From assembly GCF_947504145.1 (NCBI RefSeq), contig NZ_CANNGQ010000004.1:310001-374000 (forward strand): a stretch of 64,000 nucleotides of DNA, written 5' to 3'. This DNA is from an uncultured Microbulbifer sp. GTDB taxonomy: Bacteria; Pseudomonadota; Gammaproteobacteria; Pseudomonadales; Cellvibrionaceae. Shown in pieces: positions 42,618 through 64,000 of this stretch (position 1 is its first letter; each line of letters opens with the position of its first letter). The notes under the pieces are model-generated. The model was not told where the DNA came from and did no database searches. It saw nothing but the letters and a program-made list of their open reading frames with translations. The position numbers and the translations under genes were made by a program.

Positions 42618-42661
42618 TGTGCCTTCCTCTTGAATAAGTAATATCGAATAAATTAATCAGT

Positions 42662-43210: not shown

Positions 43211-43256
43211 ATTTGGCCTCCGGGCCGTTTCCAGGCTTTGCAAAAGTCGCCGCGGA

Positions 43257-44351: not shown

Positions 44352-44722
44352 GTGATCCTCCTTATACAGTGGATGCATTATCGGGGCCCTCGACGCGGCT
44401 TGTGGCTGCGGAGGCCCGAGTGGTTTCAGGTGCAACGAATTTAGTTACGCGTGTAACCAATGTCAAGGGTCGTGAAGGACAGCGCCCCGGATAACAGCAG
44501 TAATAGGCCCCGGAGGGGGCTGCTGGTGGGAATTTGATGACTGAGGTAAAGATTCTGGTATCCACTTTCCCAGCGACATGACTGCGAAAATCCGACTTCC
44601 AGTGAATAAGGGACGAAACGAGCGGGATCTAGGTGAGAAACTCAGGTATCCGGCCCATTGCGGATCGGATACCTGTTTCGGTGTCTTCAGAGTGGTTTTC
44701 TAGCAGAACGTCTCAGTGAGGT
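44352..44722. other. Intergenic region between flotillin and hppD genes
   Basis: A 371-base gap with the hppD promoter/operator (44438-44466) and a perfect 10-bp hairpin (CAGGTATCCG 44643-44652, CGGATACCTG 44666-44675) 47 bases after the flotillin stop, likely marking the end of the flotillin transcript although its T-run is poor. The part between 44470 and 44640 shows nothing recognisable. Confidence 0.6.
44438..44466 (-). promoter_or_regulatory. hppD promoter with palindromic operator in the spacer
   Basis: Minus strand: perfect -35 TTGACA (44466-44461), 17-base spacer, -10 TAAATT (44443-44438). The spacer contains GTTAC-GCGT-GTAAC (44444-44457), and the symmetry extends outward (TTAGTTAC/GTAACCAA). 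A repressor bound there would block RNA polymerase. The identity of the regulator is not evident; TyrR-, MarR- or IclR-type control is possible. Confidence 0.7.
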
Positions 44723-47919: not shown

Positions 47920-48660
47920 TCACCTGGATGAGGTCACAAAGCGGTCACCCACGATCTTTGCAGGGTTATCACGCACCATCTCCCAAGCCCGCTTTTCACC
48001 TACTATTTTCTCCGCCGCACGACGGCCCTCAGCAAGATTTGGTGGCCGCCGCTGAATATGATGGGTATCCGTAGCCAGTACAGTGGCCAACCCCTTCTTC
48101 AGGATCTCGGTGGCGCGGACACGTGCCGGCTCGCCGAACTGGCCAACCAACGCACCTGCCGTTACCTGAAATAAACACCCGGCCTGTACCAAAGGGTCGA
48201 TTTGATGCAAATCCCGCATAATGTCTTTGTTGCGTTCTGGGTGCGCAATCAACGGCCGGATATTCTGACGAGCGAGCCAACCGAGCAGCTTTGGCAAGCC
48301 TGCCGGGATGTGACTATGGGGCATTTCCAGCAATACCAGGAGATCTCCCTCCCAGTAACCCAGTGCCGGAAGTGTATTGGTCGAGGCGAGGTAAATTAGC
48401 TCATCTGACACACGCACCTCTGCGGCAAGCGCAAATTTGATACTGAGGTCTTTGTAGGAGGGTAAATTACCAAGGAACTCGCGAAAAGCGTGTTCTATGG
48501 AGCGAGAGGTGTTTGAGTAGCGCCCCGGGTGGATATGTGGGGTTGCCACCATATGAGTGATACCGTTAGCAGCCGCCGCCCGGATAAGCGCCACGCTTTG
48601 CTCTAATGTCCGGGGACCATCGTCAATCCCGGGCAGAATATGGCAGTGCAGATCAATCAT
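47920..48660 (-). CDS. PHP-family tyrosine-protein phosphatase (CpsB/YwqE type)
   Basis: A 246-residue manganese-dependent phosphatase of the PHP superfamily that dephosphorylates the Wzc-type kinase in capsule and EPS systems. Motifs: MIDLHCHILPGIDDGP (1-16, metal His residues), MVATPHIHPGRYSN (about 37-50), PLIAHPERNKDI (about 137-148) and LATDTHHIQRRPP (about 198-210). It is the last gene of the EPS operon, 105 bases after the kinase gene, which is its expected substrate. Confidence 0.92.
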   Translation of the reverse strand: MIDLHCHILPGIDDGPRTLEQSVALIRAAAANGITHMVATPHIHPGRYSNTSRSIEHAFREFLGNLPSYKDLSIKFALAAEVRVSDELIYLASTNTLPALGYWEGDLLVLLEMPHSHIPAGLPKLLGWLARQNIRPLIAHPERNKDIMRDLHQIDPLVQAGCLFQVTAGALVGQFGEPARVRATEILKKGLATVLATDTHHIQRRPPNLAEGRRAAEKIVGEKRAWEMVRDNPAKIVGDRFVTSSR

Positions 48661-48765: not shown

Positions 48766-50940
48766 CTATCCAGAATATTCCGGGTAATAACCGTAGTATT
48801 GATCGGAATAAGCGCTCCGTTTCTGCATCGAGACGCAGTTCAGGATGACGCCATCAGGTCTCACACCGATGCTTGCCAGACGAGAAATTCCCGCACGGAT
48901 AACGCCTACTCTTGTATCTTCTGCACGCACCACATAAAGCAGCGAACCGACCAACTTGGAAATGACCAGCACATCGCTAACCGCCTGCACCGGCGGAGTA
49001 TCAATAATAATGCGGTCGTACTTTGTCCTGAGCTCTTTCAGCATATTCTGAAACTGTACCGACCCCAGTAACCTCTGAGGATCCTCTGGACGGATTCCGG
49101 ACGGCATCAAATCAATGCCACTTTTTTTATCCCCTACAATACACTCATTGATGGCAAACCTGCCGGATAGGAGGTCGGCCAGACCAGGCCGATTCGGCGC
49201 TATACCAAATTTTCTCGCGATAGAGGGGCACCGCATATCGGCATCAATTAACAATACTTTTTCCAGCTGCCCGAGGGAGAAGGATAGATTGATGGATATT
49301 GACGTCTTTCCTTCTTCTGGAGCCGACGAGGTCACACAGATTACATCGGCTTTATTGTCTAACCTTGAAAGTACAACGCCGGTTCGCAACGATCTGATAG
49401 CCTCAGAGAACTGCCTGTCCTCTCCATCAAAGTAGTTATACAGCGGCAGATCGCCAGAGGACTCTAGGGGTACCATACCCATCATTGGCTGGCCAAGCTT
49501 CCTGCTAATGTCCTGAGGGTCCCGGATTCCATTTTTCAGAAAGTCCAGAAGAACCACTAGAGCCACGCCCAAGCCCGCGCTTGCGACAAATGCAAACAAA
49601 ACCAGAAGTCTCTTTTTGGACGCCAGTGGCCGTCTGGGTGTGACCGCCGGATCTGCTAGGCGGGCCGCCGCGGATTCATATCCCGATACTTCACGGGTTT
49701 CCTTAAATCTCGTCAGGAATGTATTGTAAAGCTGACTGTTTATCTGGACTTCCCGCTTTAGCTCGTCATAACGAACCTCTTTTTGTGCTACCGCTTGCAA
49801 ATCAGATTTTGCCGTCGCCAGCTCTCGCTCAAGAGTCCGCACCTTTTCCCTTGCCTGCTCGAAGTCCACCTCAATACTTGCCACGAGGTTCGCTATCTCA
49901 CTCCGGAGTTGGGCGCGTGCGCTGTCAAGCTCGTCTTGCGCTGCCTGCATGGTCGGATGCTTCGGGCCATAACGGCGAGCCAACTCGGTGACGCCGAGCT
50001 GGGCAGACGTTTCTGCCTGCCTCGCAGCCTGAATCAAGGGGTGATTCAGAACCTCAGGCTGGCTTAGCAATGACTCTGCTTCGCTATTTTTCCGCCGGAC
50101 CTGATTGTAAATCGCCTCGACGACTTTAAGCTCCCGCCTCGCCTCCAGCAGCTGATTCATGGTTTCATTTAGCTCTTGAGAAGCAAGCCCCCGCACTCCT
50201 TGCAGGTCTACCAAATCCTCCCGCTGCTGAAACTCGTTTAGCGCGTGCTCGGAGTCTTCCAGTTTGACGCGAAGACCTTCCAGCCTCTCACTCAGCCAGC
50301 TGGTGGCCTTTTCAGTGACATCGGTACGAACACTTTGCTGCTCTTCGATATAAGCTTGCGCTACCGCATTCGGTATAGCCGCTGCCAACTGCGCTGAGTA
50401 GCTTTCATAAGACAACTTGATCAGCTGCGTAGTTCTGACCGGTTGTACATTTATTCTGTCCACAATCTGATTTACGATCTGTTCGCGCTTGCGGCGGGAT
50501 AACGCGGCGGGATCCAGTGAAGGAGCTTCATCCTCCATACCAAGCCAATGCTTTACCTTTGAAGAAAGTGAGGGCTTGGGTGGTCGATTGAACTCTTCAT
50601 GGTTTTCTAGATTAACCGCATCAACGACGCGCTCGGCAATTGCACGCGACCGCAACATTTCAACTTGCGTCATCAGAAACTCACGACGTTGTGCACCGGC
50701 CTCATACACATCTCGGATAGAAACCAGATTGGCCTGGTTAGTAGACAACAGTAGTGTCGCAGTTGCCTGGTATCTATCGCGAATACTTTGAACGGAAAAA
50801 TATGCAGCTGTGGTGACAATCAGAGCAAACGCAGCGATATACCATTTCTTTTCATAAACGGCAAAAAAAAGGGCAATTAGATCTATATTACCCAGAGGCG
50901 AAGAGTTCGGCTCCTCGTCGATATGATTGTGATTCTCCAT
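48766..50940 (-). CDS. Wzc-type polysaccharide co-polymerase / tyrosine autokinase
   Basis: A 724-residue inner-membrane BY-kinase. An N-terminal Wzz domain with membrane helix (about 32-50), periplasmic coiled coil (about 200-410), a second membrane helix (about 450-470), and a cytoplasmic kinase: Walker A SSAPEEGKTS (about 542-551), Walker A' LLIDADMRCPS (about 569-579), Walker B IIIDTPP (about 645-651). The C-terminal tail is a tyrosine cluster (YSDQYYGYYPEYSG), the autophosphorylation site. Works with the export protein upstream and the PHP phosphatase downstream to control polymer length and export. Confidence 0.95.
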   Translation of the reverse strand: MENHNHIDEEPNSSPLGNIDLIALFFAVYEKKWYIAAFALIVTTAAYFSVQSIRDRYQATATLLLSTNQANLVSIRDVYEAGAQRREFLMTQVEMLRSRAIAERVVDAVNLENHEEFNRPPKPSLSSKVKHWLGMEDEAPSLDPAALSRRKREQIVNQIVDRINVQPVRTTQLIKLSYESYSAQLAAAIPNAVAQAYIEEQQSVRTDVTEKATSWLSERLEGLRVKLEDSEHALNEFQQREDLVDLQGVRGLASQELNETMNQLLEARRELKVVEAIYNQVRRKNSEAESLLSQPEVLNHPLIQAARQAETSAQLGVTELARRYGPKHPTMQAAQDELDSARAQLRSEIANLVASIEVDFEQAREKVRTLERELATAKSDLQAVAQKEVRYDELKREVQINSQLYNTFLTRFKETREVSGYESAAARLADPAVTPRRPLASKKRLLVLFAFVASAGLGVALVVLLDFLKNGIRDPQDISRKLGQPMMGMVPLESSGDLPLYNYFDGEDRQFSEAIRSLRTGVVLSRLDNKADVICVTSSAPEEGKTSISINLSFSLGQLEKVLLIDADMRCPSIARKFGIAPNRPGLADLLSGRFAINECIVGDKKSGIDLMPSGIRPEDPQRLLGSVQFQNMLKELRTKYDRIIIDTPPVQAVSDVLVISKLVGSLLYVVRAEDTRVGVIRAGISRLASIGVRPDGVILNCVSMQKRSAYSDQYYGYYPEYSG

Positions 50941-50947
50941 ACTCGTG

Positions 50948-51490
50948 TCAGAAAAACCCCTGCTCTATGGTTACTACGTCGCCTGGCCGTAGCTTGGTAG
51001 ACATGTCTACGCGCGTTCGCTCTTCTTCAGATCCACCCTCTCTAATGAGATATATCCTGCTTTCCGACCCCCGCTCCGTGATACCCTGCGCAAGTGCTGT
51101 TGCCTTCCCGACCGTTAAGCCCGGCTGATAGCTATACCCGCCCGGCGCCTGTACCTCGCCGTAGATAAATACCGGACGATATTGGGTAATTGTTACAGTC
51201 ACACTTGGATTAATCAGATAGTCACCCTTAAGGCCTTTTACAATGATCGCCTCAAGCTGCTCCGGCGTAAGGTCAACGACCCTAATCTCGCCGAGAAATG
51301 GATAAGTAATATTTCCGGAATCGCCGAGCATAGCCTCATGATTCAGGTCATTTTCGCCATACACCCGTATTGAAATCCTGTCACCGGCATTTAGACGATA
51401 TTCCGAAAAACTCTCTGCCACCAGCTTGAGCGGAACCATGGTTAAGCCAATCAGCGCGATAAGTAGTGACGAAGCCTTAAGGGCATACAT
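50948..51490 (-). CDS. Polysaccharide export protein (short Wza-like, SLBB)
   Basis: A 180-residue periplasmic/outer-membrane export protein. A signal peptide (1-25) is followed by the Poly_export domain (about 28-110: YRLNAGDRISIRVYGENDLN, INPSVTVTITQYRP) and one SLBB domain (about 108-175: VFIYGEVQAPGGYSYQPGLTV). It has no lipobox and only one SLBB unit, much shorter than E. coli Wza (~380), so the outer-membrane pore may be formed by the barrel protein encoded just upstream. Eight bases separate it from the kinase gene. Confidence 0.92.
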   Translation of the reverse strand: MYALKASSLLIALIGLTMVPLKLVAESFSEYRLNAGDRISIRVYGENDLNHEAMLGDSGNITYPFLGEIRVVDLTPEQLEAIIVKGLKGDYLINPSVTVTITQYRPVFIYGEVQAPGGYSYQPGLTVGKATALAQGITERGSESRIYLIREGGSEEERTRVDMSTKLRPGDVVTIEQGFF

Positions 51491-51518: not shown

Positions 51519-52730
51519 TTAAAGCGGCGCCTCTATACCCAGAAGAAACCGATTATTGTCCAAGTCCGTGCCATTGACGGTGGTGCTATTTTCAAGGCTG
51601 GAAACACCAAATCGAACAATTATCCACTCGACAGGTAGGTATCGAATTAAAAAACTTGAGCGCATTACTCTGTCCAATCTATCTGCGCCGATGAACTCCC
51701 CTTCCGTCTGACTATACGACAGTGTACTACTCAAATTCTGACCCCACTGGTGCGACCAGGAAAAGACTTTACTGTCGACGTCCACATAACTCGCAACACC
51801 CAGGGATTCCTGTACATTTTCACCCAATGAAAAGGAGAGCGTACTGTATGTTTTTGGGCTCCAGGTAATGGTCGCGTCCCAGCGTGGCCCTTCGAAATCC
51901 GCTCTGACCCCGCGAGTAAATTCCTTTTTAAGCTCCCCCCCCCGTAGCTGGATATTTGTTTTCGGCAATCTAATCTCTGCCGTCGCCATCGCCAGCATTT
52001 CATTACTGTCCCGATCCGGTATTTCGGCGAATTCTGCATACTCCAGATCCGTATCCACCAACTGAATACCCACCAGAAGTAGACTATTCAATTCATACGT
52101 TGTGCTAACGCCAGAATATACGGCCGTAGAATCGCGGATCGAATCGTCAAACTCGCTTTTTCTTATTCCGTGTCGAATCAACCCCTGGAGCCTGCCTCCC
52201 TGGCGCCCCAGGGCAATGCCGATTTCACCACTCGGCCGACGCGTCCTCTCAGCCTCAATCAAGATCGGGGCTAGACCACCATCCAGATTGCCGTTAACGG
52301 ACTGGGCAACGTCCGCGTAACTTGCCGACGTGCGCACCTCTACCATTGCAGCCGCGCGCCATTGCCAACCAAGATCCGCTGCGTAGTCAGTAACATTTTC
52401 CCTCGTTCCATTCAGGTAGTGCCCACGCGTAACGGTAAAGCTACTGCTAAGGTTTGTAACCTGCCCCTCTCTCGACAATTCGATTGACGGAGACACGCGG
52501 GTAACCCAGTCACCCTGACGGTTCTGTGTGGTCAGGAAAACATTATCGTCATATTGCACCTCCAGACCGGCAGAACCGACCAACTCGAACTCTGCCGGCA
52601 GGTCTATGGTAACGGCGTGTGCGGTTGAGGCTATTCCCGCCAAACTACAAAATAAGGCGCTCTGTCGCCAGGTGCGATTAACGGGTCCTCGCGGGAAGAG
52701 CGCCGTGGCGCAGTCGAATCTTGGCTTCAT
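51519..52730 (-). CDS. Outer-membrane beta-barrel protein of EPS operon
   Basis: A protein of about 403 residues with a signal peptide (ALFCSLAGIASTAHA) and many amphipathic strands (GSAGLEVQYDDNVFLT, VTRVSPSIELSREG) resembling the BBP2-type barrels found in exopolysaccharide loci. ATG 52730 is preferred, but an in-frame ATG at 52748 is almost equally good. In some systems this barrel is the outer-membrane exit used together with a short SLBB export protein. No enzymatic motif is visible. Confidence 0.75.
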   Translation of the reverse strand: MKPRFDCATALFPRGPVNRTWRQSALFCSLAGIASTAHAVTIDLPAEFELVGSAGLEVQYDDNVFLTTQNRQGDWVTRVSPSIELSREGQVTNLSSSFTVTRGHYLNGTRENVTDYAADLGWQWRAAAMVEVRTSASYADVAQSVNGNLDGGLAPILIEAERTRRPSGEIGIALGRQGGRLQGLIRHGIRKSEFDDSIRDSTAVYSGVSTTYELNSLLLVGIQLVDTDLEYAEFAEIPDRDSNEMLAMATAEIRLPKTNIQLRGGELKKEFTRGVRADFEGPRWDATITWSPKTYSTLSFSLGENVQESLGVASYVDVDSKVFSWSHQWGQNLSSTLSYSQTEGEFIGADRLDRVMRSSFLIRYLPVEWIIVRFGVSSLENSTTVNGTDLDNNRFLLGIEAPL

Positions 52731-52777
52731 ATCAATTTCCGCTCTCATTCACCGGACTATAAACCGGGATTGACGGC

Positions 52778-54196
52778 TTAATAAGCGTTCTTGTGGTAAA
52801 AACCACGGTAGATGGTCAGAAATATGATTCGAAGATCAAGCAGTATCGACCAGCGGCGAATATACTCGAGATCGTATTCGACACGACGACTCATCTTGTA
52901 AAGGGTGTCCGTCTCGCCCCGAAAGCCTTTTATTTGTGCCAGGCCGGTAATACCTGGCTTTACTTTATGCCGGAGCATATAGCCATTGACCTGACTTCGA
53001 TATTCTTCGTTATGCGCAACGGCATGTGGCCTAGGGCCTACGATAGACATGGTCCCCTGAAGCACATTGAAGAACTGAGGTAGCTCATCAAGAGAAGTTC
53101 GGCGCAAAATTCTTCCTAAAGGAGTAATGCGCTGGTCGCCCTCTTTCGCCTGCTCTACTTTTTCGCCATCATCCATGACGGTCATACTACGGAATTTCCA
53201 TACGTAAATAGTGCGGCCATCCAGCCCGTAGCGTCGCTGCTTGAAGATAACCGGTCCCGGCGACGAAAATTTTACAGCTGCGGCAACCACCAGGAAAACC
53301 GGTGAAATTAGCGTGAGGATAACTGAAGCCAGGGCCAGATCCTCAAGTCGCTTCAACCACCCGTCAAAGCCCTGAATCGGTGTATCAAAGACGCTTAACA
53401 GGCTGCTACTTCCCACCTGATGCCACCGCGCGTGAAGCATCTTCGCCACAAAGAAATTGGGAAGAATATGGACCGTGGCAGTAGTGTCCGAGAATTTGTC
53501 CAGCGCCTCGCTAATGAACTGCTCCGCGCGCATCGGTAAAGCAATAAATACGACATCGAGCTCGCCTGCACGGCCCTTTTTGATGGCCTCATCAACAGTA
53601 CCGAGTATTGGAAACCTGCTCTCATCACCAATGCAGGCGGTGTGCTCTTGAAATTCAGGCACCTCATAGAATCCACTGATATGAATTCCCAGCTGAGGGT
53701 TTTCTGCGAGGTCTTTAGCGAGCTTGTAACCGGATTCCGTGCAGCCGATGATGACCGCCCTGCGTGAATTCCCCCCGTTTAGGCGAATGCAAAACAGCAG
53801 CTGACGCAAGCAAAAGCGCCAGAAAGCGAGAGCAAATAAAGTAAATACCAACCATGCCGCCACCGCCGGCCGCATATAGTCAGCGCCAAAGGCGTTAAAA
53901 GAATAAGCGAGAAGGATAAGGAAGGCACACACCGCAACCCAAGCCGTTGTCACGGTACCAAAAATCCTTTTGTACGTTTCGCCGCGCCAAGACCGGTAAA
54001 GTTCAACTGACTCAGCAATGAACGCAAAACTGACGGCGGCCAAAAGGCCTGCAATCAACCAATCTTTGCCAGGCGTGACTTCAAAGTAAGCGAGACTAGC
54101 GTAAAGTACGCCCTGGATAAGCAGCACATCAAATAATCGATAAAGCGCAGTTATCCCGCCCTGCCTACTGCGGATCCATCCTTGTTCCACAAGCAC
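52778..54196 (-). CDS. Undecaprenyl-phosphate sugar phosphotransferase (WcaJ-type)
   Basis: A 472-residue polyisoprenyl-phosphate hexose-1-phosphate transferase that starts repeat-unit assembly. Four N-terminal membrane helices (about 18-125), a CoA-binding-like Rossmann domain (about 145-260: AVIIGCTESGYKLAKDL), another membrane segment (about 280-305) and the catalytic domain (about 310-472) with KFRSMTVM, RTSLDELPQFFNVLQG, SIVGPRPHA and KPGITGLAQ. First gene of the EPS operon. Glucose-1-phosphate is the usual donor of this subgroup, but galactose cannot be excluded. Confidence 0.93.
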   Translation of the reverse strand: MLVEQGWIRSRQGGITALYRLFDVLLIQGVLYASLAYFEVTPGKDWLIAGLLAAVSFAFIAESVELYRSWRGETYKRIFGTVTTAWVAVCAFLILLAYSFNAFGADYMRPAVAAWLVFTLFALAFWRFCLRQLLFCIRLNGGNSRRAVIIGCTESGYKLAKDLAENPQLGIHISGFYEVPEFQEHTACIGDESRFPILGTVDEAIKKGRAGELDVVFIALPMRAEQFISEALDKFSDTTATVHILPNFFVAKMLHARWHQVGSSSLLSVFDTPIQGFDGWLKRLEDLALASVILTLISPVFLVVAAAVKFSSPGPVIFKQRRYGLDGRTIYVWKFRSMTVMDDGEKVEQAKEGDQRITPLGRILRRTSLDELPQFFNVLQGTMSIVGPRPHAVAHNEEYRSQVNGYMLRHKVKPGITGLAQIKGFRGETDTLYKMSRRVEYDLEYIRRWSILLDLRIIFLTIYRGFYHKNAY

Positions 54197-54766
54197 CCCT
54201 CCTTTAGGTAAGGCTACATAGCCTCAAACTATTCCCTGTTATTGTTTCGCTTCGGCTATTGGGCCGGTGGCACTGGCGCGAAGCCAAATACATTACTGTA
54301 CTACTTGCGTATGACATCCCTGCAACCACGACGCCTAATTATGCCAATGCATAAATCGGGCCGAATTCCATTAAACCTGAGAGATTTTGTCAGTGGCCAC
54401 TTTCTAGTGGCGGTGCATGCCAGCGAACAATGATTATCCGCCTAAATTGTGATGGGACTCAACTAATTTTGGCGCAAAACCAAACCAGGGCACTAGAAGA
54501 GTGAAAATTGGCGCGCAAAATCACGTGCCGAGCCGTATTGTGCGACACACCTAAAAGAATATCGCGCCACGTCACCAATAAAAAAGAAAGTCCCGCCAAG
54601 ATAGGCGTGCATTTCGCACAAATTTATAATCGAGCGCAGATCCGAGAGACATTTTTGTGCGCAAGTTCGCAGCAATTTCCGGTTGACATTATTTTGATCG
54701 CTGCCATATTAGCGTCCATTAGCTGCGATTATTGTGGTTGAAAAACAGATTGGGGGGAGACAAGGA
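54197..54766. other. Divergent intergenic region between EPS operon and HPPD-like/A-T-TE genes
   Basis: A 570-base gap that separates two divergent units and marks the switch to AT-richer DNA. It holds a sigma-70 promoter for the plus-strand genes (54683-54712). The EPS promoter should lie at 54200-54500, but I cannot pick boxes with confidence. A 63-codon open frame (54242-54433) has no ribosome-binding site or recognisable content and is not called. Confidence 0.55.
54683..54712 (+). promoter_or_regulatory. Sigma-70 promoter for the HPPD-like gene
   Basis: Perfect -35 TTGACA (54683-54688), 18-base spacer and TATTAG (54707-54712), 54 bases before the start codon. Confidence 0.55.
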
Positions 54767-55429
54767 ATGTCTAGAGTCAGTAGAGTTGACCATATTGCCT
54801 ATGCAGTGGCGGAAGGGATGATCGAAAAGTGGGCGTGGTACCACATAGAAGTTGAAGGTGGAAAGCTCACCAAGCGGGTGGATGATGTCCGTCCCGACGA
54901 TCCGGATAGCAGCATGAAACTCTGGTGTATCGACTTCGAATCTTTCGGTGTGGTGCTCGTAGAAGGGATAGATCGCAAGAAGAAAAGCCAGGTCACCGCC
55001 TTTGCCGATTGCCATGGTGACCACAGCGTACAGCACATAGCCTTCGACACTGAAAATCTCGAGCAGTTTGTCTCCAGGGCCATATCTAAAGGCGTCAACC
55101 TTCGCGGACAACAGCTCGTCAGCAATGATGGGTTCGGCGAACTCAAACAACTGTTCGGCAAGGGATATGCGAAGCAGAACGCCGCGGAAATGTCCTTCCC
55201 TGAGTACGTCGAGCGCCCCAAACACGGCGCCCAGATGAGCACAAGCGTGCCTCAGAATACCGGTAAGAACTTTTATCAACGTATTGAGCATGCCCGCAAC
55301 ACCGGCGATACGTCGACGCTGATCAATTTCTCGCTTATGCCTTCCGACTGGGCTCCAGATTCCTCCGGTAAGAGAGCCTCACCCAGTGCCACACAGCCCG
55401 CCGAACAGCAAGAGCCTGCGGGGGCCTAA
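54767..55429 (+). CDS. HPPD-like single-unit VOC protein next to A-T-TE synthetase
   Basis: A 220-residue VOC-fold protein resembling the catalytic C-terminal half of 4-hydroxyphenylpyruvate dioxygenase. Ligand positions align by eye with HppD at 43.3 kb: H9 (RVDHIAYAV) with H162, H90 (SVQHIAFDTENL) with H241, and E146 (MSFPEYVERP) with E323. The H-to-H spacing is nearly equal (81 versus 79), while the H-to-E spacing is shorter (56 versus 82). The N-terminal VOC domain of HppD is absent. The tail beyond ~152 is Ser/Pro-rich and looks disordered. ATG 54767 lies 7 bases after GGGGGAG. Probable Fe(II) enzyme on an aryl-pyruvate or related compound. Confidence 0.75.
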   Translation: MSRVSRVDHIAYAVAEGMIEKWAWYHIEVEGGKLTKRVDDVRPDDPDSSMKLWCIDFESFGVVLVEGIDRKKKSQVTAFADCHGDHSVQHIAFDTENLEQFVSRAISKGVNLRGQQLVSNDGFGELKQLFGKGYAKQNAAEMSFPEYVERPKHGAQMSTSVPQNTGKNFYQRIEHARNTGDTSTLINFSLMPSDWAPDSSGKRASPSATQPAEQQEPAGA

Positions 55430-55557: not shown

Positions 55558-58269
55558 ATGGACGAGTACAGCTTGGAAGGTACATCCATATTGAACACGC
55601 GCCGCGGAGACAACCTTGATGTACCGCTTGTCACCGCTACCGTATCTCCATACGACGTCGGTGTTCCGGTAATCCGCCAGATAGAACGCAATGGCCAACG
55701 CCACGCTGACAAGGTCGCCGTTACATATAAAGATGAGGAGTTGACCTATAGCCGCTTGATGTCGTCCGCACGGCAATTGGCTGCAGGCTTACAAGCAAGA
55801 AGGGTTAGCTCAAACTCACGTGTAGCGGTATTAATGGATCCTTGCCCTGAGTTGGTAACCACTCTGCTTGCGACACACCTGCTAGGCGCGACTTATGTGC
55901 CGATAGATCCTAAGTTTCCTCCCGCGAGGATTGGGATGATTCTGGAAGACGTTGCACCAGCCATTATTGTATATGACGCCATAAGCCCAACTGAAAAATA
56001 CAATAAAATACTGAACGATTCTTCTGCAAAGCTTCAAAGCTATCAGTCTATTTCCGACCTTGGCGGTCGGCAGATCCAATCGTTCCAAGCGTACCCGGTA
56101 ACGCTGCTAAATGAATCGCATATTTTTTTCACATCCGGAACTACCGGACGCCCGAAAGGCGCGGTTTCTTCACAATTGAATCTCGCGCACGGTATGTCGT
56201 CTTCGGCTTTCTGTTTCGAGCTCACGAGCGCTCACAGCATCCTATCCGTAGCTGGCTCCTCCTTTAGTATCAGTACATTTGAGCTTCTTTCACTACTTGC
56301 TCTCGGCGGCTCCATCACTATCGCCGAACGATCGGATATCCTCGAAGTGGAGCGGCTTTTTTCTATAGCATCACGGGTATCTGTCTGGCACTTCGTTCCC
56401 ACTCTTCTCGGCAGGCTTATCGAATTCGTAGAGTCAGAGCCGCATAGAATCGCGTCACTTAAGCACCTCGAGCGAATTCTCACCGGCGGTGACAACGTAC
56501 CCCCCAGTCTTCTTTGCAAGATCCGGAGAATATTGCCACGAGTTCAGCTGTATGTGAATTATGGCGCAAGCGAAACCAATTGCATGGTCACTTATTGGCC
56601 GGTCACCGCGACGGAGCTTACTAAGACAAAAATTGGTAAGCCTCAGAAAAATGTAAAGCTCGCAGTTCTCGATAAGGACCACACGGTAGTTACAGATGGC
56701 GAGATTGGAGAATTATTTGTCTCTAGCCCAGGTGTTATACCCGGATACATGCATCGTACGGACCTGAATCACGAAAAATTCGTTGAACTGAATAGCCTAC
56801 GTTATTTCGCAACCGGCGACATGGTGCGAAAGGATAGCGATGGCCTCTACGAAATGCTCGGCCGAGAAGACTTTCAGATTCAGCTCAATGGGAACAGGAT
56901 TGAGCTATTGGAGGTAGAGAGCATACTAAAGCGAGCTCCCGGGATGAAAGACTGCGTGATCGCAGCAAAATATCTCAACGATGATGACTCTTCAGCAACG
57001 CTCATCGCATACGTAGTGCCGGAAGCGACAGGCATGGTATCCGTTAGAGATGTAAAATCCTTCGCTAAAGATTTCATTCCTTCGTATATGATTCCGTCAC
57101 TGTATCTACAGGTCGCATCGATCCCCACCAACAACAATGGCAAAGTCGATCGTATAAATTTGCCGGCACCACAAAATTGCCGGGCATTACAGTCAGACCG
57201 GGAAGAACCGCTTGCAACTCCAATGGAACACAGCATCACCGCTGTGTGGCGTGAACTTCTTGGCGACCGATCCATTCACGCTAACAGTGATTTTTTTGAG
57301 CTTGGTGGAGACTCAATATCTGCGGTACGCCTAGTTGCCAAGCTATCTACTGAGCTGTGCGCCAGTCTTTCAATTGGTGATTTAATACACAACCCAACGG
57401 TGCGGCAACAGTCAGCTCTGATCTCCAGTCGTTTAACAGCCGAAGTAAGATCAGAAGATGGCGGTGCCAACAACGACTCGGGATACCTTTTACTTAAGCC
57501 GGGGCGTAAAAATACTCCGCCCCTGCTATTGATTAACGGAGTTGTTGAGTATCTAGAGCTCGCGAAGACCCTGGCCACAGAACGCTCAGTATATGCCGTA
57601 TACCTTCCTGAAGAATTGGATCTCATCACACGCGGGGCCGATTCGAGGGCAGCCACAACAACAGACTCCATAGGAGGGATTACACAACTATATCTGTCTG
57701 TGATCCTCACGCTACAGCCAAATGGGCCATATTATCTCGCCGGCAAATCCTTTGGTGGGATCATTGCTATTGAAGTCGGGCGAGAGCTCGAAAAGCTGGG
57801 CCACGAGGTAGCATTCACGGGGTTGCTTGATACTGTAACCCCAGACGCCTTCACTGCACACCGAAGGCTTTCATTCCGCGCACAACAACATATTAAACAC
57901 ATATTTACCCACGGTCCTGGGTATCTCATGTCGCGGGTAAAACAAAGGTATTCGCAATTTACCAGGAAGAGTCGAGCACAGCATGCGGACTGTGCCAGAA
58001 AAACAGATGATGCGAACAACATACGAATACGACATCAAGTCCGTAAGAATGCAATTTTTACCACTCGCTTATCTCGCATCTATCGGCCGATCGTCTTAAT
58101 CAAAGCACGTGACCGAAGGCGCCTGTATGGAGAACAGCCCTCCAAAGACCTTGGATGGGGAAAGTATTGTGAAAATCTTACGACCTACGAGGTGCCAGGT
58201 GATCACCATTCCATTTTGAAGGCTGAGTACGTCGGGCAAGTCGCCAATAAAATTGAGTGTTTTATATAG
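55558..58269 (+). CDS. NRPS-like A-T-TE synthetase, probably aryl-alpha-keto-acid activating
   Basis: A 903-residue single-module enzyme without condensation domain. Adenylation domain (~40-535): TSGTTGRPKG (192-201), NYGASET (334-340), YFATGD (416-421), GREDFQIQLNGNRIELLEVE (435-454), catalytic K529 in NNNGKVDR. At the position of the Asp that binds the substrate amino group (FDxS) it has F236-S237-I-S, so an alpha-amino acid is an unlikely substrate. Carrier protein: FFELGGDSIS, phosphopantetheine Ser S586. Thioesterase: GKSFGG (S731), D758 and H883 (GDHHS). This is the architecture of atromentin/terrequinone/ralfuranone synthetases, which dimerise aryl pyruvates. The start has a weak ribosome-binding site. 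Base composition is AT-richer than the core genes. Confidence 0.85.
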   Translation: MDEYSLEGTSILNTRRGDNLDVPLVTATVSPYDVGVPVIRQIERNGQRHADKVAVTYKDEELTYSRLMSSARQLAAGLQARRVSSNSRVAVLMDPCPELVTTLLATHLLGATYVPIDPKFPPARIGMILEDVAPAIIVYDAISPTEKYNKILNDSSAKLQSYQSISDLGGRQIQSFQAYPVTLLNESHIFFTSGTTGRPKGAVSSQLNLAHGMSSSAFCFELTSAHSILSVAGSSFSISTFELLSLLALGGSITIAERSDILEVERLFSIASRVSVWHFVPTLLGRLIEFVESEPHRIASLKHLERILTGGDNVPPSLLCKIRRILPRVQLYVNYGASETNCMVTYWPVTATELTKTKIGKPQKNVKLAVLDKDHTVVTDGEIGELFVSSPGVIPGYMHRTDLNHEKFVELNSLRYFATGDMVRKDSDGLYEMLGREDFQIQLNGNRIELLEVESILKRAPGMKDCVIAAKYLNDDDSSATLIAYVVPEATGMVSVRDVKSFAKDFIPSYMIPSLYLQVASIPTNNNGKVDRINLPAPQNCRALQSDREEPLATPMEHSITAVWRELLGDRSIHANSDFFELGGDSISAVRLVAKLSTELCASLSIGDLIHNPTVRQQSALISSRLTAEVRSEDGGANNDSGYLLLKPGRKNTPPLLLINGVVEYLELAKTLATERSVYAVYLPEELDLITRGADSRAATTTDSIGGITQLYLSVILTLQPNGPYYLAGKSFGGIIAIEVGRELEKLGHEVAFTGLLDTVTPDAFTAHRRLSFRAQQHIKHIFTHGPGYLMSRVKQRYSQFTRKSRAQHADCARKTDDANNIRIRHQVRKNAIFTTRLSRIYRPIVLIKARDRRRLYGEQPSKDLGWGKYCENLTTYEVPGDHHSILKAEYVGQVANKIECFI

Positions 58270-58547: not shown

Positions 58548-60521
58548 ATGAGGAAGATTGGATATCTAAGGGAAGTACAAGGTCTAAGGATATATGCGGC
58601 ACTTCTAGTCGCCGTTTACCACATCTGGTTTCAGCGTGTATCCGGCGGCGTTGATGCATTTTTCGTGATCGCGGGCTTTTTTATCTACTCCTCACTTTTC
58701 AAAAATGGTGCTCCAGACTGGCCTAACCTATTAGCTTATTACAAGAAGACTTTGGCTCGTGTTGTACCAAGTACAAGTATTGTAATTCTATGCACCTGTG
58801 CAAGCTTCTTTTTGATTGGCATGGAGAGCAAATGGAACTCTCAAATTAAAGATGCCATAGCATCCATTTTCTTTTTAGAAAACTGGTGGCTATTTTTATC
58901 CGGAACCAATTATTTGGCGAGAGGTGAAATAGCCAGCCCTTTCCAGCACATGTGGGCTTTGTCTGTACAGATGCAGGTTTACGTTGCTCTCCCAATAATC
59001 TTCATTGCTTTAAGCTTTATTTTTCGGGGATCTAAATATTTTTATCGAGACATTAGGCTCGCATTAGCATGCTTTTTATTTTTGGGGTTCGCCTATGCCA
59101 TTTTAGTAACTGAAATGAATCAGGCGTCTGCATACTTTAATACTTGGGCACGATTTTGGGAATTTTTGTCTGGCGCGTTATTTGCATCGGTCGTTCATAA
59201 ACTGAATTTGTCGAGAGTTTGGTCTTGGTTTATTGGTTATGGATGTTTGTTGATATTAACATTTTACGCAGCACTCATATCCGTGGGAAGCCACTTCCCA
59301 GGTGTTGCTGCCGTTGTTCCTGTAGTCGCTACCGTTGGCATTATTTTGGCGGCAAACAATGGAGCAAATTTGCGCCTCTTAAATAACAGATTGACTCAGC
59401 GACTCGGTGACATTTCCTTCACCTTTTATCTGTGGCACTGGCCTATACTCATTGGTTACTTGCAGACCACAGGAGTTGAGGCTGTTAGTTTTTTTGCAGG
59501 CGTCCTAATAATCACTGCATCTCTGATTCTCGCATGCATTACCTACTTTTTCTTTGAAGTTCCATTCCGTAAATCTTCGATAATTAATAGAAGCTTCGCA
59601 CACACAACAGCTGCGAGTGTGTTAGTAATGCTCCCAGCTATCGGAACCGTAGGCTTTTGGGGAGTGAACTATATTTCGGCTAAAGAACGTGCAAATCACG
59701 ACGTTGAAATACTATTAAGTGGCGGGAATCCGGTCGGAGTGGTGCCAGCACCTGTTATAGCCAAGTGGGATAAATCGGAAAGCCTAGACAAATCCTGCAG
59801 TCAGCGATGGGATAAAGCTGAATTGATCGAGTGCACATTCGGAAATATGGAAGGGGAAAAGGTGGTTATGTTGGTAGGCGGCTCACATTCGGCCCATTGG
59901 CTACCCGCCCTTCAGACAATTGCTTCGACGGACAGATCTCTAAAAATTTTGAATATCACCAAAGCAGGATGCCCTCTTACATTGTCTAGCTTGGATCTCA
60001 ATCTTGGCGCAGAGAAGGCTTGCCTGAGCTGGTCAAAAGACGTAATCAAAAGAATTAATGAAATCAAACCACGAGCTGTTTTTACGCTACTCACCTCTAC
60101 TCGGACGAGCTCTGAGCAAGCTGGCGATTTTATACCCCAAGGATTTCTCGAAGCTTGGCGGCTCATACCTGATATTCCTATAATTTCAATTAGAGATACT
60201 CCCAGAGCAGATTTTGATGTCGCACTTTGCGTTGACCGTTTTGGCCCAGATTCAGAAAATTGCTCTATCGATAGAAAAAAGAATCTGAATCCTTATTTGA
60301 GCGATATTTTATCGAACGGGGAAATTGATAGTTTGAATTTGCCAAGCAATGTTTTTCCTATAGATGTTTCGGACCTGCTATGTGGCGAAAGTATATGCTC
60401 AGCAGTGACCGGGAACGTTTTAAAATTTAGAGACCAGGACCATTTTACAGCAACTTATGCTCGAGTTTTGGCTCCCGAAATTCATTCCAGAGTTAAGGAA
60501 TATGGGATTTTCATAGATTGA
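58548..60521 (+). CDS. Acyltransferase-3 membrane protein with C-terminal SGNH domain (OafA-like)
   Basis: A 657-residue protein with about ten membrane helices (about 15-370) of the acyltransferase 3 family and a periplasmic SGNH-type domain (about 435-655). The N-terminal REVQGLRIYAALLVAVYHIWF and GGVDAFFVIAGFFIYSSLF match the family pattern. In HMWALSVQMQVYVALPII the usual WSLSVEEQFY acid pair is replaced by Gln-Met. SGNH blocks: GGSHSAHW (about 445-452) and DQDHFT (about 629-634, DxxH). Such proteins O-acetylate polysaccharides. The gene is markedly AT-rich and sits between the A-T-TE gene and a sulfotransferase; the acceptor could be the nearby EPS or a small molecule. The 278-base gap before it is AT-rich without a gene. 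Confidence 0.88.
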   Translation: MRKIGYLREVQGLRIYAALLVAVYHIWFQRVSGGVDAFFVIAGFFIYSSLFKNGAPDWPNLLAYYKKTLARVVPSTSIVILCTCASFFLIGMESKWNSQIKDAIASIFFLENWWLFLSGTNYLARGEIASPFQHMWALSVQMQVYVALPIIFIALSFIFRGSKYFYRDIRLALACFLFLGFAYAILVTEMNQASAYFNTWARFWEFLSGALFASVVHKLNLSRVWSWFIGYGCLLILTFYAALISVGSHFPGVAAVVPVVATVGIILAANNGANLRLLNNRLTQRLGDISFTFYLWHWPILIGYLQTTGVEAVSFFAGVLIITASLILACITYFFFEVPFRKSSIINRSFAHTTAASVLVMLPAIGTVGFWGVNYISAKERANHDVEILLSGGNPVGVVPAPVIAKWDKSESLDKSCSQRWDKAELIECTFGNMEGEKVVMLVGGSHSAHWLPALQTIASTDRSLKILNITKAGCPLTLSSLDLNLGAEKACLSWSKDVIKRINEIKPRAVFTLLTSTRTSSEQAGDFIPQGFLEAWRLIPDIPIISIRDTPRADFDVALCVDRFGPDSENCSIDRKKNLNPYLSDILSNGEIDSLNLPSNVFPIDVSDLLCGESICSAVTGNVLKFRDQDHFTATYARVLAPEIHSRVKEYGIFID

Positions 60522-60805
60522 GAGCACAGCTTTTTTCGAATCATCTTGAGATTTGCGTGAAATTTTCAAGCTAGAGCTTAGGTTTTAACGGATTAAACTC
60601 TATCTATTTTAATCAAATTTGGATATCTAACTTCTCGAAACCCAAGAAGCACTTCTATTCTGACGCTCGTATTCACTGCTACCGAGTAGCATATGACCTT
60701 AACACCACCGATGTCGCGTTACAGAAAGAGTTGAGGGTAGGTGGTGTGAAGGAAATCTAACTTGACAATGTAATAGACTGCCATGTTTATGTAGTGCGCA
60801 TTAAA
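60522..60805. other. Intergenic region after acyltransferase gene
   Basis: AT-rich 284 bases between convergent genes. One frame stays open from about 60572 to a stop near 60760 (ending LRVGGVKEI) but lacks a start codon and a recognisable domain; it could be a remnant of an older gene. No clear terminator is seen. Confidence 0.4.
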
Positions 60806-62053
60806 CTATTCCGTAAACGTTCGCCGGCTTCCGAAAATCAAAGCAATTTTACCAACTACCTGACTCAGAGTGCCGACGCCTAGCCGAATACTTGGATCGA
60901 CTGTCACAGGCTTGTTCAAGAAATATCTGCGGACAATTATCCAAATTGCCTGGAAACAAAGGGAAAATCTTAGCGTGGTATTTTTCCCTAATGGAAGATC
61001 GCCTAGTAGAACATCCGGATGGGGTTTTAAGGCCTCCGCAATATTAGCTGGATAACGAATTGGACTCGCTGTGTACCTAAATCCTTTCTGAGCGCAATCT
61101 ATAATATGTGGTTCATTGGCAACGCCAAAATTTTCACCGAGCGGAAAAACATTTATTTCTTGTTTGGGCTTTTCTGGATTAGGGTAACCAAGTATTTCGA
61201 GAGCATCACAACATATAAGCGATGCTGCTCTCGCGATTTTGTTATCCATATTTAACTTCCAACCGAAGACATTATCGTCATTTATTTTCTTGTCGATATC
61301 ATTCTTCCAGGTTTCCGAAGCTACTCGAACATGCTCAGCACCAGACCGATCAAGCATAGATGATTCGAAATTCTCTCCCAAGAACTTGCAGATTTCCCGC
61401 ACTTTTTGGCTGGGATCTTGTACCAGATCCTCATACCTAACAGTGATACTATTTAAATCATTCTCAAAAAACGAATGGCTTATTGTGAATACAGTCATCC
61501 ACCGGTAGAACTCTCCTATAAGCGAAGTAGAAAGCCCAATATTTTTTATTACCGAGGGAATTGAATCTCTTGGATCACGGACAATTCGGATGATTTTGGC
61601 TTCAGGATAAAGTTTGCGAATAGTCTCAACGTACAATATATGTCGGGGTGTTTTTTCCGCCCAACGTGCTTTTCCCTGAGCTTTAGCAAAGGCAGCGGGG
61701 ACTGCTGAATAAACTGCCTTTGGTGACGGTTCTTGTGTAGACAGGTAATCTCTTACCGATTCCTTTGTCAGCCCAAAATGACTAATCAGGCTTCTTCCAT
61801 CTGGGTATAATATACATTCGAGTCGCTCGGTGACTTGCTCTACCCATTTTGGCCCCGATATGATGCGGCTGGCATCTTCCTGTGGCACGCACTTAAACAG
61901 GTCTGTCTCCGGCCCGCACGCTATTCTGCTGTGACTCCCCATTATAGCCGACAAAAGCGATGTGCCCGACCTAGGCGGCCCGACGATAAAAATAGGGGGC
62001 GATGAATCTCGTATTATTTTAGACATGGCAAATGGAATAATAGTGAAGGCCAT
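60806..62053 (-). CDS. Sulfotransferase family protein
   Basis: A 415-residue protein with the PAPS-dependent sulfotransferase fold. The 5'-phosphosulfate loop is FIVGPPRSGTSLL (about 22-34), and the 3'-phosphate-binding region is IIRIVRDPRDSIPS (about 153-166). WAEKTPRHILY (about 132-142) is common in the group. The C-terminal ~150 residues (after about 265) are not recognisable. The start is uncertain: ATG 62053 or 62026, neither with a good ribosome-binding site. Substrate could be a polysaccharide or a phenolic small molecule from the neighbouring genes. AT-rich, like the surrounding region. Confidence 0.85.
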   Translation of the reverse strand: MAFTIIPFAMSKIIRDSSPPIFIVGPPRSGTSLLSAIMGSHSRIACGPETDLFKCVPQEDASRIISGPKWVEQVTERLECILYPDGRSLISHFGLTKESVRDYLSTQEPSPKAVYSAVPAAFAKAQGKARWAEKTPRHILYVETIRKLYPEAKIIRIVRDPRDSIPSVIKNIGLSTSLIGEFYRWMTVFTISHSFFENDLNSITVRYEDLVQDPSQKVREICKFLGENFESSMLDRSGAEHVRVASETWKNDIDKKINDDNVFGWKLNMDNKIARAASLICCDALEILGYPNPEKPKQEINVFPLGENFGVANEPHIIDCAQKGFRYTASPIRYPANIAEALKPHPDVLLGDLPLGKNTTLRFSLCFQAIWIIVRRYFLNKPVTVDPSIRLGVGTLSQVVGKIALIFGSRRTFTE

Positions 62054-63170: not shown

Positions 63171-63785
63171 CTACCTAAACTGATTCCGAAGTTTCATCAG
63201 TAACGGAAACCGTCTTAATCTCGATTTAACCCATATAGGTAGCGGGAAGGCCTTGTTGGCAGCAGGGTAAGCATGGCTACCGCCTTTTATACCCAGGAAA
63301 TCTTCCAGCAGGGTCATTTTGGAATCGGACCCAATTGGGAGCACAAGTAAGTCACTATCTCGGTCGCGAAAGTAGTCAAGGACGTCATCTACGTGATTAG
63401 AGTACGCCGATCGGAAACGCTCTCTATTAAAAACCGAACTACCGTAAAGCGCCTTATGCAATTGCTTCTCAGCCTCAGAACTGGTTAGAACATCATTAAA
63501 ATGATTCTCACACGACTTCAGCCAGCCATTGACATCTCTTGTTGTGAGGATAAATTTCGACCCCGGGTAACGCCTGTCCAGTTGTTTGTAGTAGTAGGCA
63601 ATTTCAATATCGGTAGCGGAATCGACATCATCGAGCTGTGAATAGTCAAAGGTTAGTCCTTTTGGGTCACGGAAGGATAACCACTGAGAGGGATTGTGTA
63701 TTGAATTTTTATACCCGAGTATCTTCAGCGCTTTTGTTAAGCTGCTTGTTCCTGTCTTGGACAAGCCAATTCCAAAAATCTTCAT
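63171..63785 (-). CDS. Sulfotransferase-like P-loop protein
   Basis: A 204-residue protein of the sulfotransferase superfamily (Sulfotransfer_4-like). Its N-terminal loop GIGLSKTGTSSLTKAL (about 5-20) is the PAPS/P-loop equivalent, and KFILTTRDVNGWLKSC (about 77-92) corresponds to the 3'-phosphate site. ATG 63785 is taken; an in-frame ATG at 63791 exists. Related proteins include sulfotransferases of unknown acceptor. AT-rich. The remaining 215 bases to the window end contain no recognisable gene. Confidence 0.8.
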   Translation of the reverse strand: MKIFGIGLSKTGTSSLTKALKILGYKNSIHNPSQWLSFRDPKGLTFDYSQLDDVDSATDIEIAYYYKQLDRRYPGSKFILTTRDVNGWLKSCENHFNDVLTSSEAEKQLHKALYGSSVFNRERFRSAYSNHVDDVLDYFRDRDSDLLVLPIGSDSKMTLLEDFLGIKGGSHAYPAANKAFPLPIWVKSRLRRFPLLMKLRNQFR

Positions 63786-64000
63786 AATCATCCTGATTTA
63801 GTATCGGAGTTTACAGGCTATCCGGCGAGGCCACGCACAACTGTTACTAAAGCAAAGTCATTCCGCATTGATTTTCACCAAAACATCCTTTGAAAATTGG
63901 CATCACATATAGGATTAGATGCCTTTGAGAATAAAAAATATTTACTGGCAGTGATGGCTTCCAGGAAAGCTATCGCACTTGGTACAATGAGCATATCGTA

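What the first reader, a model, noticed from the sequence alone, without database searches (positions are those of the whole stretch)
55558..58269. A-T-TE enzyme lacking the amino-group Asp: candidate bacterial aryl-pyruvate dimerising synthetase
The protein is one module A-T-TE with intact active sites (K529, S586, S731/D758/H883) and no condensation domain. The FDxS motif that normally supplies the Asp contacting the substrate amino group reads FSIS (S237). Known A-T-TE enzymes of this kind (AtrA, TdiA, RalA) activate aryl pyruvates and let the thioesterase join two units into furanones, quinones or butenolides. In bacteria such enzymes are rarely described. The neighbouring HPPD-like protein points to a 4-hydroxyphenylpyruvate-type substrate.
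Basis: partly seen in the sequence, partly recalled or inferred. Interest (0 to 1): 0.82.

Follow-up and report, generated by a model that had tools for sequence, protein, structure and literature searches.

The report
Aromatic-acid enzyme inside exopolysaccharide locus
A marine Microbulbifer carries an assembly-line-type enzyme that appears to have lost its grip on amino acids and, with a partner resembling a tyrosine-breakdown oxygenase, sits in a sugar-polymer gene cluster beside a membrane acyl-transfer enzyme, suggesting bacteria may make an aromatic building block for their outer coat.

Summary
In detail: a 903-aa A-T-TE protein with intact active sites and Ser where amino-acid A domains carry the amino-binding Asp. 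The change is family-wide: 16 of 16 members found (12 Microbulbifer, 4 cyanobacterial) have Ser and lack the YGPTE Pro; they form one fully supported group apart from 37 comparison A domains, all with Asp. The upstream partner is not an HPPD but a one-barrel relative of HPPD/hydroxymandelate synthase keeping the His-His-Glu triad. The pair recurs in 12 of 48 Microbulbifer genomes and in three cyanobacteria, there with a prephenate dehydrogenase gene. An aryl-pyruvate-derived substrate is therefore likely. Best reading: the pair makes an aromatic acyl unit for the polysaccharide. Dimerisation is neither shown nor excluded; the published valine mark of alpha-keto-acid A-T-TE enzymes is absent. 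Substrate, product and TE reaction remain untested.

The parts
54734..55429 (+). Single-barrel VOC protein related to the C-terminal barrel of HPPD/hydroxymandelate synthase (conserved start probably ATG at 54767); residues H9, H90, E146 (numbered from 54767) match the HPPD metal triad
55558..58269 (+). A-T-TE NRPS-like enzyme, 903 aa; A-domain pocket reads SIFHLGNCMK with Ser at the amino-contact position
58548..60521 (+). AT3-SGNH (OafA-like) membrane acyltransferase, 43% GC; holds the place taken by an MBOAT gene plus an SGNH-like gene in 8 relatives
60806..62053 (-). Sulfotransferase of the locus (family present in 8 of the 13 neighbourhoods compared, window included)
63171..63791 (-). Second sulfotransferase (Sulfotransfer_4)
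52778..54196 (-). Undecaprenyl-phosphate glucose phosphotransferase (WcaJ type), divergent from the VOC gene
51519..52748 (-). Outer-membrane beta-barrel protein (BBP2_2) of the exopolysaccharide locus
50948..51490 (-). Polysaccharide export protein (Wza type)
48766..50940 (-). Chain-length/tyrosine autokinase (Wzc type)
47920..48660 (-). CpsB/CapC-type phosphatase
43257..44435 (-). Canonical two-domain HPPD near a fumarylacetoacetase-family gene; tyrosine catabolism, probably not part of the cassette

Best explanation
The A-T-TE enzyme and the upstream VOC protein form a cassette that makes an activated aromatic acid from the tyrosine pathway for use on an exopolysaccharide. Proposed course: the VOC protein, a relative of the Fe(II) enzymes HPPD and hydroxymandelate synthase, acts on an aryl-pyruvate such as 4-hydroxyphenylpyruvate (inferred). 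The A domain, which lacks the amino-group Asp (shown), activates the resulting alpha-keto, alpha-hydroxy or aryl-acetic acid and loads it on the T domain (inferred). The TE, whose triad is intact (shown), releases, esterifies or couples it (unknown which). The membrane acyltransferase encoded next, AT3-SGNH here and MBOAT plus an SGNH-like protein in relatives (shown), carries an acyl group across the membrane to the polysaccharide (inferred), a logic like the Dlt and Alm systems. My separate estimates: non-amino-acid substrate 0.85; aromatic, 4-HPP-derived substrate 0.65; polysaccharide as destination 0.45; direct T-domain hand-off to the membrane acyltransferase 0.2.
For: Ser replaces Asp in 16 of 16 family A domains and YG[A/S/C]SE replaces YGPTE, against Asp in all 37 comparison domains of the tree; the 16 form one group at 100/100. 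VOC: His-His-Glu triad invariant in 20 rows, two of them true HPPD barrels; the PDB matches of its profile and its fold model begin with HPPD and hydroxymandelate synthase. Pairing: A-T-TE in 12 of 48 genus genomes, VOC in the same 12 plus G039, where the VOC match holds stops and no A-T-TE was found. Cyanobacteria: VOC within 10 kb of the S-type A-T-TE in L046, L047 and L048, with a prephenate dehydrogenase-family gene in all three (above an NCBIfam cut-off in L046) and glycosyltransferases in L046 and L047. All 12 Microbulbifer copies lie in the exopolysaccharide locus. Close homologues of the MBOAT and SGNH-like genes occur in 8 of 48 genomes, all 8 among the 12; the other 4 have an AT3 gene there. 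In L036 and L037 the A-T-TE and AT3 ORFs overlap by 4 bases (ATGA). All 8 MBOATs end in FLYFNF; a C-terminal hexapeptide with an invariant Tyr is the acyl shuttle of bacterial MBOAT-SGNH systems (PMC12148441, passages; that FLYFNF is such a hexapeptide is my reading). Window against L027: dN 0.06 and 0.28, dS 1.5 and 3.7 for VOC and A-T-TE (dS near saturation), so both are under purifying selection.
Against: Literature holds that MBOAT-SGNH pairs other than Dlt, and AT3 proteins, use acyl-CoA (PMC12148441 and PMC9558356, passages), so the acyltransferase may simply acetylate the polysaccharide. The Dlt and Alm systems, as I recall them, have no TE. BLAST found no relative of the MBOAT, AT3 or AT3-SGNH proteins around the three cyanobacterial pairs. 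Eight VOC relatives (L049-L056) have no A-T-TE in the held flank; 7 of these genomes were searched whole: six had no match at 1e-60 and one only an Asp-type domain. One S-type A-T-TE (L088) has no VOC match in its genome. The whole polysaccharide locus comes and goes together, so co-occurrence says less about A-T-TE and acyltransferase in particular. Three of the 37 Asp-type comparison domains also lack the A5 Pro (L078, L104, L111). HPPD's Asn in the PLNE strand is not conserved in the VOC (its role is recalled). Foldseek TM-scores to HPPD are low (0.35, rmsd 13), and the model was built on an alignment that contained two HPPD rows.
Confidence: 0.42

Rival explanations
1. One reading: the A-T-TE activates an aryl-pyruvate and the TE joins two units into a soluble furanone, quinone or butenolide; the VOC tailors substrate or product and the acyltransferase acetylates the product or the polysaccharide.
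For: Same domain order and same loss of the amino Asp as described for alpha-keto-acid A-T-TE enzymes; intact TE triad; HPPD/HMS-related partner and prephenate dehydrogenase; EchA and DatA make polyporic acid from phenylpyruvate in bacteria (PMC9379647, passages). Position 5 is Ile in two of the longer relatives (L015, L016), as in some fungal phenylpyruvate enzymes.
Against: Code position 1 is Ser in 16 of 16, not Val; position 5 is Leu in the window, neither the Asn of fungal 4-HPP enzymes nor the Val/Ile of phenylpyruvate enzymes; constant location in an exopolysaccharide locus in Microbulbifer; no dimer evidence.
Confidence: 0.25
2. The cassette makes an unrelated soluble or cell-bound aromatic compound, and the neighbouring MBOAT/SGNH-like or AT3 genes only O-acetylate the polysaccharide; their nearness reflects one large inherited locus.
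For: Acyl-CoA is the usual donor of such acyltransferases; no such acyltransferase found around the cyanobacterial pairs; the locus is inherited as a whole.
Against: Three acyltransferase types (MBOAT pair, AT3, AT3-SGNH) occupy the position downstream, and in two genomes the AT3 ORF overlaps the A-T-TE by 4 bases; a 97-99% identical tract in G032 and G029 spans part of the A-T-TE, MBOAT, SGNH-like and part of the sulfotransferase genes, although a tract only shows contiguity.
Confidence: 0.2
3. The A domain still activates an amino acid, binding it without the Asp, and the TE releases it or passes it on (a Dlt/Alm-like aminoacylation of the polysaccharide).
For: McyG activates Phe with Val at this position (PMC11253843, passages); D-alanine esters on teichoic acids are known (Dlt).
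Against: Second change at the A5 proline and a coherent group apart from the Asp-bearing domains compared; association with an HPPD/HMS-related protein and prephenate dehydrogenase, whose known relatives act on non-amino acids.
Confidence: 0.1

Closest known systems
Aryl-pyruvate A-T-TE synthetases (AtrA, TdiA, HapA1, RalA, EchA, DatA)
   Same: One-module A-T-TE, no active condensation domain, no amino-contact Asp, likely aryl-pyruvate-related substrate.
   Different: Ser instead of Val at code position 1; partner VOC; exopolysaccharide locus in Microbulbifer. Cyanobacterial L046 keeps the last quarter of a condensation domain (profile 352-456 of 456); the three longer Microbulbifer forms show none by Pfam; no HHxxxDG-like motif in any of the 16 members.
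HPPD / 4-hydroxymandelate synthase
   Same: VOC fold and the His-His-Glu triad in the partner protein.
   Different: About 220 aa, one barrel, 35 bits against a 277-bit family cut-off; the Asn of HPPD's PLNE strand not conserved.
Dlt / Alm systems and MBOAT-SGNH or AT3-SGNH polysaccharide acylation
   Same: Adenylation plus carrier domain encoded beside an MBOAT related to DltB with an SGNH-like gene, or an AT3(-SGNH); MBOATs carry a Tyr-containing C-terminal hexapeptide.
   Different: A and T are fused to a TE; substrate apparently not an amino acid; MBOAT far below the DltB equivalog cut-off (170 against 375 bits); polymer is a Gram-negative exopolysaccharide.

Membership tests
Aryl-pyruvate A-T-TE synthetases (AtrA/TdiA/RalA/EchA) | A-T-TE without an active C domain | tested here: met
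Aryl-pyruvate A-T-TE synthetases (AtrA/TdiA/RalA/EchA) | No Asp at A-domain code position 1 | tested here: met
   Ser in 16 of 16
Aryl-pyruvate A-T-TE synthetases (AtrA/TdiA/RalA/EchA) | Val at code position 1 (published mark of alpha-keto-acid enzymes) | tested here: not met
   Ser in 16 of 16; mark from PMC10316625 (passage)
Aryl-pyruvate A-T-TE synthetases (AtrA/TdiA/RalA/EchA) | A domain groups with characterised members | not tested
   No reference sequence at hand; a sample of 119 Actinomycetota genomes (at most 7 candidates scored per genome) gave none that I recognised as EchA; RalA not fetched
Aryl-pyruvate A-T-TE synthetases (AtrA/TdiA/RalA/EchA) | TE couples two aryl-pyruvates | not testable with these tools
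   needs enzyme assay
HPPD / hydroxymandelate synthase (VOC partner) | 2-His-1-Glu metal triad | tested here: met
   H9, H90, E146 invariant in 20 rows, 18 VOC and 2 HPPD; that these are the ligands in HPPD is recalled
HPPD / hydroxymandelate synthase (VOC partner) | Two-barrel protein above the TIGR01263 cut-off | tested here: not met
   231 aa, 35.1 against 277 bits
HPPD / hydroxymandelate synthase (VOC partner) | Fold of the catalytic barrel | tested here: inconclusive
Dlt-type polymer acylation | MBOAT with catalytic His and C-terminal Tyr hexapeptide plus an SGNH partner | tested here: inconclusive
   MBOAT: WHG and FLYFNF in 8 of 8 relatives, profile matches DltB structures at 5.5e-39. 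SGNH partner judged from GSNS and DxxxH by eye only; no Pfam, NCBIfam or convincing PDB match. The pair was not found in the window's genome
Dlt-type polymer acylation | Separate A enzyme and carrier, no TE; amino-acid substrate | tested here: not met
   fused A-T-TE, Ser at the amino-contact site
AT3-SGNH acyltransferases (window gene 58548-60521) | AT3 and SGNH domains with catalytic motifs | tested here: met
   PF01757 79.6 and PF19040 74.3 bits, above cut-offs; RxxR, R-x10-H, GGSH and DQDH found by pattern

The most novel reading that the evidence does not exclude
A new route of bacterial surface-polymer decoration: an NRPS-like A-T-TE and a one-barrel HPPD-related oxygenase convert a tyrosine-pathway aryl-pyruvate into an activated aromatic acyl group, which an interchangeable membrane acyltransferase (MBOAT with SGNH-like partner, AT3, or AT3-SGNH) attaches to a sulfated exopolysaccharide; related cassettes serve cyanobacterial glycans.
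Probability: 0.3. Interest if true: 0.82.

Novelty: new variant of a known kind. Interest (0 to 1): 0.62.

Why it matters
If the reading holds, NRPS-like enzymes would have a role in building polysaccharides rather than free small molecules, and aromatic substituents (possibly for adhesion, UV or redox protection) would join the known acyl decorations of biofilm polymers. It would also define a Ser-type A-domain pocket for non-amino acids and a one-barrel HPPD-related enzyme family, both testable in cultivable Microbulbifer strains. Even if the product proves to be a free small molecule, genome-mining rules that expect Asp or Val at code position 1 may misread these genes.

Tried and rejected
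The idea that the neighbour is an HPPD was rejected: it is far below the family cut-off and a real HPPD lies elsewhere in the window. Recent duplication of that HPPD was rejected: the VOC is only 17-18% identical to the genus HPPD barrel in the alignment. A close plasmid-borne relative was sought and not found (2,890 records matched, all under 60%; the 40 listed rows 26-30%). A wider natural family was sought: VOC in the order, 4 of 390 genomes at 1e-30, all own genus; A-T-TE in the class, 7 of 321 genomes at 1e-130, the only S-type one being the window's own (2 candidates scored per genome); cyanobacteria, 9 of 292 genomes at 1e-160, 3 of them S-type (3 candidates scored per genome), so members could have been missed. 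An EchA yardstick was sought in 119 Actinomycetota genomes without one that I recognised. The first VOC fold was poor (pLDDT 39) and was set aside. A direct profile comparison of VOC and HPPD gave a probability of only 23% (E 0.0009) over 84 columns. The SGNH-like protein gave no convincing PDB match by sequence. Promoter and terminator scans were no richer than shuffles. Literature: ten searches showed in their listings no title or abstract opening on an A-T-TE or VOC of this kind in an exopolysaccharide locus. Two Microbulbifer papers were searched by term only: PMC11285056 has no occurrence of exopolysaccharide, acyltransferase, MBOAT, dioxygenase or thioesterase, and its NRPS passages concern bulbiferamides and general counts; PMC12538549 has none of NRPS-like, exopolysaccharide, acyltransferase or hydroxyphenylpyruvate. 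A mandelate-racemase-superfamily gene near the L046 cluster was not taken as evidence.
Full report
What is there. The ORF at 55558-58269 encodes a 903-aa protein with AMP-binding, AMP-binding_C, PP-binding and Thioesterase domains and no Condensation domain. It is the only full-length match in its own genome; the next best scores 66 bits against 2028. The genus is Microbulbifer: six loci of named Microbulbifer lie on contigs of the same length as those of six unnamed same-genus genomes.

The pocket. I mapped the ten code positions by aligning 71 A-domain segments; the assignment relative to GrsA rests on motif anchors recalled from the literature. The window reads SIFHLGNCMK. All 16 family members (12 Microbulbifer; cyanobacterial L046, L047, L048, L081) read S-I-F-H at positions 1-4, G at position 6 and K at position 10, and have YG[A/S/C]SE where most others have YGPTE. 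All 37 comparison A domains used in the tree have Asp at position 1; three of them (L078, L104, L111) also lack that Pro. The 16 form one group at 100/100 support. Of the 71 segments, 18 were dropped before the tree: 13 partial duplicates, three acyl-CoA-synthetase-like rows (Thr at position 1) and two short comparison rows (L106, L107; Asp). The tree is unrooted and nearly all comparison rows came from searches with this family, so it shows coherence of the Ser type, not its origin. Published alpha-keto-acid domains carry Val or Ile at position 1 and, in StsA, replace the A5 proline; two alpha-hydroxy-acid domains carry Ala or Gly. Ser is none of these. McyG activates Phe without the Asp, so the change alone is not proof.

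The partner. The upstream gene (54734-55429; probable start 54767) encodes a protein more conserved than the A-T-TE (83-87% against 53-65% identity in the eight nearest relatives). It scores 35 bits against the 4HPPD model, cut-off 277. Aligned with the barrels of two true HPPDs, three residues at the HPPD metal-ligand positions (H9, H90, E146) and two Gln (Q75, Q89) are invariant in 20 rows; that HPPD uses these residues as ligands is recalled. A profile of 17 VOC rows finds HPPDs first in the PDB (1.6e-10). The second fold model (pLDDT 69.6; its alignment held two HPPD rows) matches HPPD (E 1.6e-8, but TM 0.35) and hydroxymandelate synthase (E 4.9e-8) first, and hydroxymandelate synthase first by Z (10.2, rmsd 2.8 over 155 residues; simple VOC proteins tie within 1). 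Hydroxymandelate synthase turns 4-HPP into 4-hydroxymandelate and accepts other alpha-oxo acids (PMC3720870, passages). HPPD and HMS activity cannot be told apart here.

Pairing. Of 48 genus genomes, 12 have the A-T-TE at 1e-100; the same 12 have the VOC, plus G039, where the VOC match holds two stop codons and no A-T-TE was found (none at 1e-100 in the genome; none in the 20 kb fetched). One of the 48 relatives outside the genus had a weak VOC match, 2.4e-4. A scan of genome contigs with the VOC found 17 loci: 6 Microbulbifer and 11 others. Three of the 11 (cyanobacteria L046-L048) have the S-type A-T-TE within 10 kb, with a prephenate dehydrogenase-family gene (one family in all three; annotated in L046 and L047; above an NCBIfam cut-off in L046), an O-methyltransferase (L046 annotated; L048 by homology), and glycosyltransferases (L046, L047). 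The other eight have no A-T-TE in the held flank; in at least two (L049, L054) the VOC stands beside an Lrp/AsnC regulator. Seven of these eight genomes were searched whole: six had no match at 1e-60, and the seventh (G445) only an Asp-type domain; L053's genome was not held. One S-type A-T-TE (G575, L088) has no VOC match in its genome at 1e-5. The link is strong but not absolute.

The setting. In all 12 Microbulbifer the pair lies in an exopolysaccharide locus (in L030 the VOC was found by tblastn). In 11 it is transcribed away from a WcaJ-type gene; in G018 (L035) that gene follows on the same strand. Downstream lies a membrane acyltransferase: an MBOAT gene and an SGNH-like gene in 8; the AT3-SGNH fusion in the window; AT3 in G018, G019 and G011 (among relatives Pfam was run on one MBOAT and one AT3, the others were assigned by homology). 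In G018 a hexapeptide-acetyltransferase gene stands between A-T-TE and AT3. MBOAT homologues reach E below 1e-280 in exactly those 8 of 48 genomes; two others (G023, G038) have a distant one at about 1e-91. The SGNH-like gene is in the same 8 of 48. Drawing 8 genomes inside the 12 by chance has probability 1.3e-6, but the genomes are related, so this is not a true significance. Within the short A-T-TE group the window's copy is nested among MBOAT-bearing species, so its AT3-SGNH is probably a replacement; the gene is 43% GC against 49-54% for the A-T-TE and VOC genes, though the MBOAT gene of L027 is also low, 46%. The outer-membrane protein of this locus matches at 1e-140 or better in 13 of 48 genomes, the 12 plus G039, and only more weakly (best 3.5e-100) in 14 more (the profile was built from these loci). 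So A-T-TE and VOC belong to this type of locus. G032 and G029 share a tract of 97-99% identity running from inside the A-T-TE through MBOAT and SGNH-like into the sulfotransferase; the left flank is 59-90% identical and the right side hardly alignable.

Mechanism. Shown: domain order, intact catalytic residues, loss of the amino Asp, triad in the VOC, locus and change of acyltransferase type. Inferred: an aryl-pyruvate-derived substrate, oxidation by the VOC, loading on T, use on the polysaccharide. Unknown: the TE reaction. In three cyanobacterial members the TE nucleophile reads Cys (GLCVGG, GMCAGG), in L088 Ser, so TE chemistry may differ. In the Dlt pathway an MBOAT takes its acyl group from a carrier protein, whereas other MBOAT-SGNH pairs, whose MBOAT bears the C-terminal Tyr hexapeptide, are held to use acyl-CoA (PMC12148441, passages). 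The MBOATs here end in FLYFNF, which I read as that hexapeptide, and yet stand beside a carrier domain; this is the point of tension and of interest.

Verdict. Not filed as an AtrA/RalA/EchA-type enzyme, since the valine mark is not met and no tree with those enzymes was made; it may still work like one. Known kinds of parts in an arrangement that the listings of my ten literature searches did not show as described.

Noticed in passing
window 58548-62053: GC falls to about 42-44% over the AT3-SGNH and sulfotransferase genes, against 49-54% in the VOC and A-T-TE genes; may be recently exchanged DNA.
   Followed up: partly
L027 11000-16500 against L028: 97-99% identical tract in an otherwise 59-90% identical locus of two species: recent recombination of the acyltransferase/sulfotransferase part of the locus.
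   Followed up: partly
L046 12941-16570, L047 5007-8675, L048 12942-16595: Cyanobacterial S-type A-T-TE proteins have Cys in place of the TE Ser; L046 also keeps the last quarter of a condensation domain.
   Followed up: partly
L038 10705-11352 (G039, Microbulbifer elongatus SaN0-4): Exopolysaccharide locus with a VOC match interrupted by stop codons and no A-T-TE beside it: apparent decay of the cassette.
   Followed up: partly
L049, L054: VOC relatives without the A-T-TE stand beside an Lrp/AsnC-family regulator; homologous genes flank the VOC in other lone cases, hinting at a stand-alone amino-acid-related role.
   Followed up: partly
window 41610-44435: Canonical HPPD, a glyoxalase-family gene and a fumarylacetoacetase-family gene lie near the exopolysaccharide locus; HPPD homologues lie in the fetched neighbourhoods of four other Microbulbifer (L027, L031, L032, L038).
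   Followed up: partly
L046 463-4677: A second A-T-TE-type protein whose N-terminal stretch looks by eye like a formyltransferase, with an Asp-type A domain, on the other strand about 5 kb from the VOC.
   Followed up: no
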